Below, piece by piece: positions 21,568 to 23,550 of a DNA stretch of 64,000 nt (the stretch's first letter is position 1; every line of letters begins with the position of its first letter). The notes under the pieces are model-generated. The model searched no databases. It was not told the DNA's origin and saw only the letters and a list, made by a program, of their open reading frames with translations. The DNA comes from Aquisphaera insulae (lineage in GTDB: Bacteria; Planctomycetota; Planctomycetia; Isosphaerales; Isosphaeraceae). The stretch spans positions 1-64,000 of the forward strand of contig NZ_JAALJH010000028.1 in the NCBI RefSeq assembly GCF_011064615.1. Reading direction: 5' to 3'. The position numbers and the translations under genes were made by a program.

Positions 21568-22032
21568 ATGGAAGTCATGGTGTTCGTCGGAATCCAGGGA
21601 TCGGGGAAGAGCACGTTCTATCGGGACCGTTTCGCGGGGACGCACGTCCACGTGAGCATGGACAACTTCCGGAACGCTCGTCGCCCGCGGCTGAAGCAGA
21701 TGACCCTGATCGAGGAATCGCTGTTGCAGGGCCTTTCGGTCGTCGTGGACAACACCGATCCGACGGTCGAGGATCGCGCCCCGATCATCGCCATGGCGAA
21801 AGCCCACGGCGCGACAGTGACCGCGTATCACTTCGATTCGCCGCTCGCGGATTGCCTCGAGAGGAACGGTCGGCGGACCGGCCGGGCGAACGTCCCGAAG
21901 GTGGCGATCCTGGCGACGATTGGGCGGCTGAAACCGCCGACCAGGGACGAGGGGTTCGATCGGATCACGGTCGTCCGGCTGGTGCGAACGGGAGAAGGCA
22001 TCTTCGAGTACCTTGAGGAGTCCGTGCCGTGA
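21568..22032 (+). CDS. Polynucleotide-kinase-like P-loop protein
   Basis: A 154-residue P-loop kinase. Walker A is GIQGSGKST (residues 8-16). The remainder matches the kinase domain of PNKP-type enzymes: VVVDNTDPTVEDRAPII (the DNT-P-R motif), then a helix with CLERNGRRTGRANVP (the lid arginines). That family phosphorylates 5'-OH ends of RNA or DNA. No phosphatase or ligase domain is attached. The ATG at 21568 has CGGAG upstream. Its stop overlaps the GTG start of the Thg1-like gene as GTGA, so the two are translationally coupled. Zeta-toxin-like or metabolite kinases are alternatives. The DNT motif argues for polynucleotide kinase. Confidence 0.75.
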   Translation: MEVMVFVGIQGSGKSTFYRDRFAGTHVHVSMDNFRNARRPRLKQMTLIEESLLQGLSVVVDNTDPTVEDRAPIIAMAKAHGATVTAYHFDSPLADCLERNGRRTGRANVPKVAILATIGRLKPPTRDEGFDRITVVRLVRTGEGIFEYLEESVP

Positions 22033-22808
22033 AACCCTCCGACTTCGAGGCCCGGATGAGGTCGGGCGAGTTCTTCCACGACCTGCGGATGCTGCCGGCC
22101 ACCTGGGCCGTCCTGCGGCTGGACGGACACGGCTTCACCCGATTCACCGCCCGGCGCTTTCAGAAGCCGTTCGACGCGAGCTTCCACGCCCAGATGATCG
22201 CGACCGCGGAGCGGCTCCTCGAACGCTTCCAGGGGCTCTATGCCTACACGGAGAGCGACGAGATCTCCATCCTCCTCCCCCGGGACTGGGACCTCTTCGA
22301 CCGCGAGCTCGAGAAGGCCGCGAGCCTGTCCGCATCACTCGCCGGCGCTGTCTTCTCGATCGCCTGCGGCGAACCCGTCCAGTTCGACAGCCGGGCCTGG
22401 CTCGGTGCCCGCGACGAGGACGTGGTCGACTACTTCCGCTGGCGGCAGGCCGATGCCACCCGCTGCGCCCTCAACGGATGGTCCTACTGGACGCTTCGGA
22501 AGGCCGGCCGGAGCGTGGCCGAGGCGACAGCCGCCCTCCATGGCAAGTCGGTCGCCTTCAAGAACGATCTGCTTCGCAACCACGGCATCAACTTCAACGA
22601 GCTCCCCTGCTGGCAGCGACGCGGGACCGGGATCTACTGGGAGCGGTTCGAGAAGGAAGGATTCGACCCCATGCGGGGCCTCGCCGTGAAAACCGTGCGG
22701 AGGCGAATGAAGGTCGATCGCGAGTTGCCGATGAAGGGAGAATACGGGAAGCTCGTCGAACGGCTCGTGAGGTCCGCAGATCGGGAAGGGTCCAGGAGGA
22801 CGGCCTGA
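22029..22808 (+). CDS. Thg1-like protein (3'-5' RNA polymerase family)
   Basis: A 259-residue member of the tRNA-His guanylyltransferase (Thg1) superfamily. These enzymes add nucleotides to RNA 5' ends, and bacterial Thg1-like proteins repair 5'-truncated tRNAs. Visible are the metal-binding LRLDGHGFTRFT (Asp32) and YAYTESDEISILL (Asp77-Glu78), plus conserved NGWSYWTLRKAGRS and NHGINFNELPCWQRRGTG. The length matches the family. The GTG start at 22029 has GAGGAG 8 nt upstream and overlaps the kinase stop by 4 bp. A tRNA-repair rather than His-tRNA-maturation role is inferred from bacterial origin and the kinase partner. Confidence 0.9.
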   Translation: MKPSDFEARMRSGEFFHDLRMLPATWAVLRLDGHGFTRFTARRFQKPFDASFHAQMIATAERLLERFQGLYAYTESDEISILLPRDWDLFDRELEKAASLSASLAGAVFSIACGEPVQFDSRAWLGARDEDVVDYFRWRQADATRCALNGWSYWTLRKAGRSVAEATAALHGKSVAFKNDLLRNHGINFNELPCWQRRGTGIYWERFEKEGFDPMRGLAVKTVRRRMKVDRELPMKGEYGKLVERLVRSADREGSRRTA

Positions 22809-22845
22809 CGCGAGATCGATCACCCAGGGCAGAGGCGGAACGACC

Positions 22846-23550
22846 ATGAGCGGAAAGCGCCGCTTTCACGAACGGCAAGCACGCCTGGCCGCTCGGGCGG
22901 AGCAGGAACGGCGACCGGCCGGGGCGGAAGGTCTCCCCGTCAACCGAGAGGCCCTCGCCCCGAGCAATAGCTACGACGAGCCCGGGTTCGTCAAGCGTGG
23001 CTTCTACGTCGATACGCCGTTTGTCTGCCGCTCGTGCGGCGAACCTCAGGTCTGGACCGCGGCCCAGCAGAAATGGTGGTACGAGGTCGCCCGGGGGGAC
23101 GTGTTCTCGACGGCCAGCCTGTGTCGCCCGTGCCGGCAGCGAGAGAGGGCGCGGCGACGTGAGGCGCAGGTCTCCGGCGGAGACCCGAACCCGTACAAGG
23201 ACGCGGGCCTGCTCCTCGCTCGAGTTCGCACCCAGATCGAGCCGGAACTCCTGACGGCCGGTTACCGCCTCGTGGGCCGCAATCGCAAGGATGCTCGCCC
23301 GATGCTGTTCCTCGATTACGCCGCGCCGGGTGCGATGCTCTCCATCTCCTGGGACCAGCGCGTCGCGAGACTATCCGCGGACCTCCTCACCGAGGGAGGA
23401 GCCCAGGTCCGGTCGATCGCCTCGGTCCCGTTCGGGAGCCTCCGTTCCACACCGCAGATCGAGGCCCGTCTCGCGGACTTCCTCGGGTCGCTGCGGAGTT
23501 TCCTGGAGGGCCCGGCGTCCCCTCATGGCACGCCGGGGCCGGGACGTTGA
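22846..23550 (+). CDS. Zinc-ribbon (zf-trcl type) protein of the kinase/Thg1-like operon
   Basis: A 234-residue protein with a central treble-clef or zinc-ribbon module: FVCRSCGEPQVWTAAQQKWWYE, then LCRPCRQRERARR (Cys pairs near residues 61/64 and 93/96). This fits the probable zinc-ribbon zf-trcl family. The N-terminus is basic and Arg-rich. The C-terminal half (about 115-220) is an unrecognised alpha/beta domain beginning YKDAGLLLARVRTQIEPELL. It lies 37 bp after the Thg1-like gene on the same strand, so it is probably co-transcribed. A nucleic-acid-binding role is likely but inferred. No catalytic motif is visible. Confidence 0.65.
   Translation: MSGKRRFHERQARLAARAEQERRPAGAEGLPVNREALAPSNSYDEPGFVKRGFYVDTPFVCRSCGEPQVWTAAQQKWWYEVARGDVFSTASLCRPCRQRERARRREAQVSGGDPNPYKDAGLLLARVRTQIEPELLTAGYRLVGRNRKDARPMLFLDYAAPGAMLSISWDQRVARLSADLLTEGGAQVRSIASVPFGSLRSTPQIEARLADFLGSLRSFLEGPASPHGTPGPGR

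What the first reader, a model, noticed from the sequence alone, without database searches (positions are those of the whole stretch)
21568..23550. Kinase + Thg1-like polymerase + zinc-ribbon operon: candidate 5'-end RNA repair module
A stand-alone PNKP-like kinase domain overlaps by 4 bp (GTGA) a Thg1-like gene with intact metal residues (Asp32, Asp77, Glu78). A zf-trcl zinc-ribbon gene follows 37 bp later. Thg1-like proteins need a 5'-phosphate that they activate before 3'-5' addition, and many ribotoxins leave 5'-OH ends. A coupled kinase would convert 5'-OH to 5'-P and feed the polymerase. RNA repair clusters are known, but this three-gene set with an unassigned C-terminal domain in the third protein looks little described.
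Basis: partly seen in the sequence, partly recalled or inferred. Interest (0 to 1): 0.85.

Follow-up and report, generated by a model that had tools for sequence, protein, structure and literature searches.

The report
Kinase–Thg1 gene pair for RNA repair
Two overlapping bacterial genes, a kinase and a reverse-direction RNA polymerase, form a widely conserved pair that probably repairs broken RNA ends, as was proposed in print in 2010, while the third gene beside them looks like a local neighbour and not part of the unit.

Summary
The first two form a real, conserved unit. A PNKP-like kinase lies just upstream of Thg1 in 21 of 31 Thg1 loci from unnamed related genomes (the window is one of the 31) and in 55 of 80 named loci, the 80 being the best matches kept. 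Kinase and Thg1 tree distances correlate (r = 0.84; best of 1000 permutations 0.28).

The coupling and its mechanism (the kinase makes the 5'-phosphate that Thg1 needs; RNA repair) were published in 2010 (PMC2904730; abstract and passages seen).

The third gene does not belong to the conserved unit. Its profile matches in 0 of the 80 named loci and 0 of the other 30 related loci. In a same-genus genome with the same gene order, its slot holds an unrelated reading frame.

tRNA-His maturation is an unlikely main role, because this genome encodes G-1. Most likely the pair repairs 5'-hydroxyl or shortened RNA ends; no activity was tested. New member of a known kind, of modest interest.

The parts
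21568..22032 (+). [quoted passage not shown]
   Evidence: Pfam AAA_33 3.8e-15; polynucleotide kinase/phosphatase chains are the nearest solved structures; G8, G13, K14, D32, D61-N62-T63, R99, N100 and R103 conserved in 73-75 of 76 Thg1-linked kinases
22029..22808 (+). Thg1-like 3'-5' RNA polymerase, 259 aa, GTG start
   Evidence: Pfam Thg1 + Thg1C; solved Thg1-like proteins; D32, S76, D77, E78 conserved in 108-111 of 111
22029..22032 (+). GTGA stop/start overlap of kinase and Thg1
   Evidence: sequence; in the same-genus genome the kinase and Thg1 matches meet at the same base
22846..23550 (+). zf_Tbcl (treble clef) protein, 234 aa, with an unassigned C-terminal domain; a neighbour, not part of the conserved pair
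   Evidence: Pfam PF13451; no Thg1 linkage in other loci examined; unrelated reading frame in the same slot of a same-genus genome

Best explanation
A two-gene RNA 5'-end repair unit. The kinase transfers phosphate to a 5'-hydroxyl RNA end, as left by metal-independent ribonucleases. The Thg1-like protein then activates that 5'-phosphate with a nucleotide and adds nucleotides backwards (3'-5'), copying the opposite strand, for example to restore a shortened 5' side of a tRNA acceptor stem. Shown here: intact sequence motifs, overlapping genes, conserved adjacency and matching trees. Inferred: both activities, their order, the RNA substrate, and that damage (not maturation) supplies it. The zf_Tbcl gene downstream is not part of the unit.
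For: Adjacency: 21 of 31 Thg1 loci from unnamed related genomes (window included) and 55 of 80 named loci have the kinase just upstream on the same strand. By record titles (phylum of each genus recalled) the 55 include Cyanobacteria, Myxococcota, Planctomycetota, Acidobacteria, Actinomycetota, Chloroflexota, Armatimonadetes, Bacteroidota and Clostridia. In 110 loci the kinase family is found by gene calling in 57; the only larger group is Thg1 itself, the next (12 loci) lies over Thg1 on the opposite strand, and no further family exceeds 9 loci. Tree distances correlate, r = 0.84 for 76 pairs, against at most 0.28 in 1000 permutations. The kinase profile matches polynucleotide kinase/phosphatase chains (1.6e-22) better than L-seryl-tRNA(Sec) kinase (5.8e-9). 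tRNA-His encodes G-1 and C73, and 0 of 47 main-set tRNA calls have a mismatch at acceptor positions 1-3. In two related genomes a full bacterial Pnkp (TIGR04075, 1418 and 1426 bits) is the second gene downstream of Thg1. Bacterial and archaeal Thg1-like proteins studied prefer 5'-shortened tRNAs in vitro (PMC6471195, passages).
Against: I saw no assay of such a pair. 25 of the 80 named loci have no adjacent kinase, though one of them (L161) is cut at the contig end; only 3 of those 25 genomes show a close kinase elsewhere, 19 show weaker matches only and 3 none. Ten of the 31 related loci also lack it, at least one (L019) cut at a contig end. So Thg1 can persist without the kinase. Bacterial Pnkp does not clearly stand in: a Pnkp-sized ORF (850 aa or more) with a kinase-profile match occurs in 16 of the other 22 genomes and in 34 of 50 kinase-bearing genomes searched of 55 (my counts), no real difference. 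The Arg three residues after Asp32, which I recall as an acceptor contact in phage T4 and bacterial enzymes, is present in only 3 of 13 aligned kinases. Tree correlation also follows from shared species history, and the 80 named loci are those nearest the window protein, not a random sample.
Confidence: 0.7

Rival explanations
1. Thg1 here adds G-1 to tRNA-His, as the eukaryotic enzyme does, and the kinase is incidental.
For: Bacterial and archaeal Thg1-like proteins can add G-1 in vitro (PMC6471195, passages).
Against: The main-set tRNA-His gene has G at -1 and C73. Thg1 is patchy: 14 of 79 relatives, 21 of 294 in the phylum sample. The HINN stretch of the 3wbz protein, which I recall as the eukaryotic tRNA-His recognition motif, aligns with TRCA here.
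Confidence: 0.08
2. Thg1 activates the kinase-made 5'-phosphate to a 5'-App end that an RNA ligase then uses, so the pair feeds ligation instead of polymerisation.
For: Proposed as an option in PMC2904730, which also reports an RNA ligase in some bacterial Thg1 neighbourhoods (passages). A full Pnkp is the second gene downstream in two related genomes, and one is encoded elsewhere in this genome.
Against: No further family exceeds 9 of 110 loci beside the pair; the three window neighbours scanned are not ligases.
Confidence: 0.12
3. The kinase acts on a small molecule or on aminoacyl-tRNA (PSTK-like) and its link to Thg1 has another reason.
For: AAA_33 is a broad family (recalled); the window kinase alone also matches the PSTK model weakly (5.9e-6, below cut-off).
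Against: Polynucleotide kinase/phosphatase chains match far better (1.6e-22 against 5.8e-9), and the partner needs a 5'-phosphate end.
Confidence: 0.07
4. The reader's three-gene repair module with the zf_Tbcl protein as an RNA-binding third component.
For: Same strand, 37-bp gap in the window.
Against: zf_Tbcl beside Thg1 in 0 of 80 named loci and 0 of 30 other related loci; an unrelated reading frame sits in its slot in a same-genus genome.
Confidence: 0.03

Closest known systems
Thg1–polynucleotide kinase gene neighbourhoods (Anantharaman, Iyer, Aravind 2010, PMC2904730; abstract and passages seen)
   Same: Same two families, same adjacency, same proposed mechanism
   Different: No MACRO-domain or RNA-ligase gene among the three window neighbours scanned; the zf_Tbcl neighbour is local
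Bacterial Thg1-like proteins (such as BtTLP; PMC3701042, passages)
   Same: Same family; metal-site residues and the activation-site Ser are present
   Different: This one overlaps a kinase gene; no activity measured
Kinase domains of mammalian PNKP and bacterial Pnkp (4gp7 is listed only as 'Metallophosphoesterase'; that it is the Pnkp kinase domain is recalled)
   Same: P-loop, the Asp at position 32 and the DNT motif align with PNKP
   Different: Stand-alone 154-aa protein without phosphatase or ligase domains
Bacterial Pnkp/Hen1 RNA repair (PMC4411300, search listing only)
   Same: Kinase step on RNA ends; a Pnkp lies near Thg1 in two related genomes
   Different: Here extension of the 5' end is proposed, not ligation with Hen1

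Membership tests
Thg1-like protein (TLP) | Thg1 and Thg1C domains | tested here: met
   both over cut-off
Thg1-like protein (TLP) | Three metal-binding acidic residues | tested here: met
   D32, D77, E78
Thg1-like protein (TLP) | Lacks the HINN stretch of eukaryotic Thg1 (motif recalled) | tested here: met
   TRCA aligns with HINN of 3wbz
Thg1-like protein (TLP) | Templated 3'-5' nucleotide addition | not testable with these tools
   needs assay
Polynucleotide 5'-kinase (PNK group) | Walker A and catalytic Asp (role of the Asp recalled) | tested here: met
   G8, G13, K14, D32 each in 74 of 76
Polynucleotide 5'-kinase (PNK group) | Acceptor-contacting Arg three residues after the Asp (recalled from T4 and bacterial Pnkp) | tested here: inconclusive
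   R35 in the window but in only 3 of 13 aligned kinases; the PNKP chains also lack it at that place
Polynucleotide 5'-kinase (PNK group) | Phosphorylates 5'-OH RNA | not testable with these tools
   needs assay
Published Thg1–PNK gene pair (PMC2904730) | PNK-group kinase gene next to bacterial Thg1 | tested here: met
Published Thg1–PNK gene pair (PMC2904730) | Optional: MACRO-domain or RNA-ligase gene in a subset of the clusters | tested here: inconclusive
   not among three window neighbours scanned; others not scanned
Three-gene kinase–Thg1–zf_Tbcl module | Conserved adjacency of the third gene | tested here: not met

The most novel reading that the evidence does not exclude
The pair is a self-contained, ligase-free RNA repair pathway: it rebuilds the 5' side of cut tRNA acceptor stems by kinase priming and reverse polymerisation, and it spreads between phyla as a two-gene cassette. 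That would give bacterial Thg1-like proteins the natural role and substrate that remain open.
Probability: 0.35. Interest if true: 0.6.

Novelty: new member of a known kind. Interest (0 to 1): 0.25.

Why it matters
The natural substrates of bacterial Thg1-like proteins have not been settled (PMC6471195, passages). A kinase gene tied to Thg1 in many phyla predicts that the natural substrate starts as a 5'-OH end. That can be tested at the bench, although the prediction itself dates from 2010.

Tried and rejected
Third gene as module member: rejected. In the same-genus genome 950 bp lie between Thg1 and the next shared gene, with an open frame that looks like a membrane protein (my reading of the translation) and no acceptable zf_Tbcl match (best tblastn E 0.011 over 21 residues).

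Structure of the third protein: AlphaFold2 on the single window sequence gave mean pLDDT 55.2 and pTM 0.41, too poor for a fold search, so none was run. The model suggests helix, five strands, helix for the C-terminal part, which is weak evidence. A Pfam scan of 8 C-terminal domains gave one match at E 0.22. The domain also occurs alone (L054, L060).

Pnkp replacing the missing kinase: 16 of 22 against 34 of 50, so no support (my counts). ORF length and a weak profile match are not proof of Pnkp; only three Pnkp proteins were confirmed by NCBIfam.

Other conserved partners: clustering of called genes in 110 loci gave no further family in more than 9 loci. The group of 9 lies about 5.9 kb away on the opposite strand; one of 7 actinobacterial loci lies about 1.7 kb away, same strand in 6 of 7; neither was followed up. 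Ten neighbours scanned by Pfam and ten proteins by NCBIfam (three of them Pnkp) showed unrelated or no functions otherwise. My gene caller is crude: on the whole window it missed the zf_Tbcl gene, and on short regions it misplaced genes, the window pair and that of L071 included, so small conserved genes could be missed.

Promoter and terminator scans found nothing. PADLOC matched none of the three proteins at E 1. A search for the zf_Tbcl family by four names listed 0 papers.

One of 68 Rfam tRNA matches was not fetched.

Full report
What is there. Three same-strand genes lie at 21568-23550: a 154-aa P-loop kinase, a 259-aa Thg1-like protein starting at GTG inside the kinase stop (GTGA, 22029-22032), and after 37 bp a 234-aa protein with a PF13451 domain. 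Asp32, Asp77 and Glu78 of Thg1 are intact and nearly invariant.

The pair is real. The Thg1 family search hit 21 of 294 genomes in a phylum sample and 14 of 79 relatives, with overlap; together these gave 31 Thg1 loci, the window included, of which 21 have the kinase just upstream. Of the ten without it, at least one (L019) is cut at a contig end. The 80 are those closest to the window protein, so they are not a random sample and may favour the kinase-linked clade. One plasmid record, of Deinococcus taeanensis, shows a Thg1 and an AAA-family ATPase annotated under the match. Thg1 matches also occur in 98 phage and 18 plasmid records.

The two genes share a history. Tree distances of 76 kinase–Thg1 pairs correlate at r = 0.84; the best of 1000 random relabellings is 0.28. 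Part of this is species history. The window's clade (with the same-genus genome G295 and the same-family genome G308) lies apart on the Thg1 tree from four other same-family genomes that also carry the kinase (G325, G330, G334, G337); two further same-family Thg1 loci (G298, G302) lie elsewhere without it. This suggests that the pair entered the family more than once as a unit (inference).

What the kinase resembles. The profile of 13 Thg1-linked kinases matches polynucleotide phosphatase/kinase chains (mammalian, recalled) at 1.6e-22, 4gp7 (bacterial Pnkp kinase domain, recalled) at 2.3e-14, L-seryl-tRNA(Sec) kinase at 5.8e-9 and 1ly1 polynucleotide kinase (phage T4, recalled) at 1.5e-6. In NCBIfam the window kinase matches bacter_Pnkp at 1.6e-11 and PNK-3'Pase at 3.2e-10, both far below those full-length cut-offs. 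Conserved positions include the P-loop, Asp32, Asp61-Asn62-Thr63 and Arg99, Asn100, Arg103.

What it probably does. The tRNA-His gene of this genome carries G at -1 and C73, so Thg1 is not needed to make G-1. Of 68 Rfam tRNA matches 67 were fetched; of 47 distinct main-set calls none has a mismatch at acceptor positions 1-3, and one doubtful tRNA-Val has mismatches at 4 and 5. Outside the main set, an odd tRNA-His(ATG) call on contig C113 has mismatches at 1 and 3, and one array tRNA at 7. So constitutive editing of encoded 5' mismatches is unlikely. Bacterial and archaeal Thg1-like proteins studied prefer 5'-shortened tRNAs (PMC6471195, passages). A 5'-phosphate end is the substrate of the enzymes characterised, and the kinase can supply it (PMC2904730, passages). 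In G330 and G334 a full bacterial Pnkp is the second gene downstream of Thg1. Facultative RNA 5'-end repair fits best.

Results against. 25 of 80 named loci lack an adjacent kinase; one (L161) is cut at the contig end. In the 25 genomes three show a close kinase elsewhere (E 2e-49 or better; one of these is the genome of L161), 19 show only weaker matches, and three show none. Pnkp-sized ORFs are no commoner in these genomes than in kinase-bearing ones (16 of 22 against 34 of 50). Two distant Thg1 proteins (L099, L100) have altered metal-site motifs. So Thg1 and the kinase are separable.

The third gene is not part of it. The zf_Tbcl profile finds nothing in 80 named Thg1 loci and nothing in the other 30 related loci with regions of 7.4-13 kb. 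Four genomes with both genes keep them apart (G048, G121, G308, G325; in G308 and G325 on different contigs). The same-genus genome G295 has the same order of CoaB-like gene, kinase, Thg1 and a downstream gene (identities 79, 66, 84 and 72%), but between Thg1 and that downstream gene lies an unrelated open frame. The C-terminal domain of the third protein recurs in related zf_Tbcl proteins and alone, and remains unassigned.

What is known. [quoted passage not shown] The lists returned by my searches (at most 25 or 30 rows each) showed no title or abstract start describing an experimental test of the pair. A key review (PMC5062991) and the 2011 biochemistry paper (PMC3061083) are not held, so I cannot say that no test exists.

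Verdict. A confirmed observation, an already published interpretation for two of the three genes, and a third member that comparative evidence refutes. New member of a known kind.

Noticed in passing
own genome G000:C266:158203-161225 (L221:6204-9226): A tight array of 21 divergent tRNA genes covering most amino acids, separate from the main tRNA set, many with lower Rfam scores. Neighbouring called genes were not identified.
   Followed up: partly
own genome G000:C90:54339-57149 (L236:2340-5150, - strand): A full bacterial Pnkp (TIGR04075, 1414 bits), so the genome holds a second kinase for RNA end-healing.
   Followed up: partly
L099:5247-5999 and L100:5907-6680: Distant Thg1 relatives with altered metal-site motifs, possibly inactive as polymerases.
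   Followed up: no
L054:1501-1845 and L060:1507-1833: The C-terminal domain of the zf_Tbcl protein occurs as a stand-alone frame in related genomes.
   Followed up: partly
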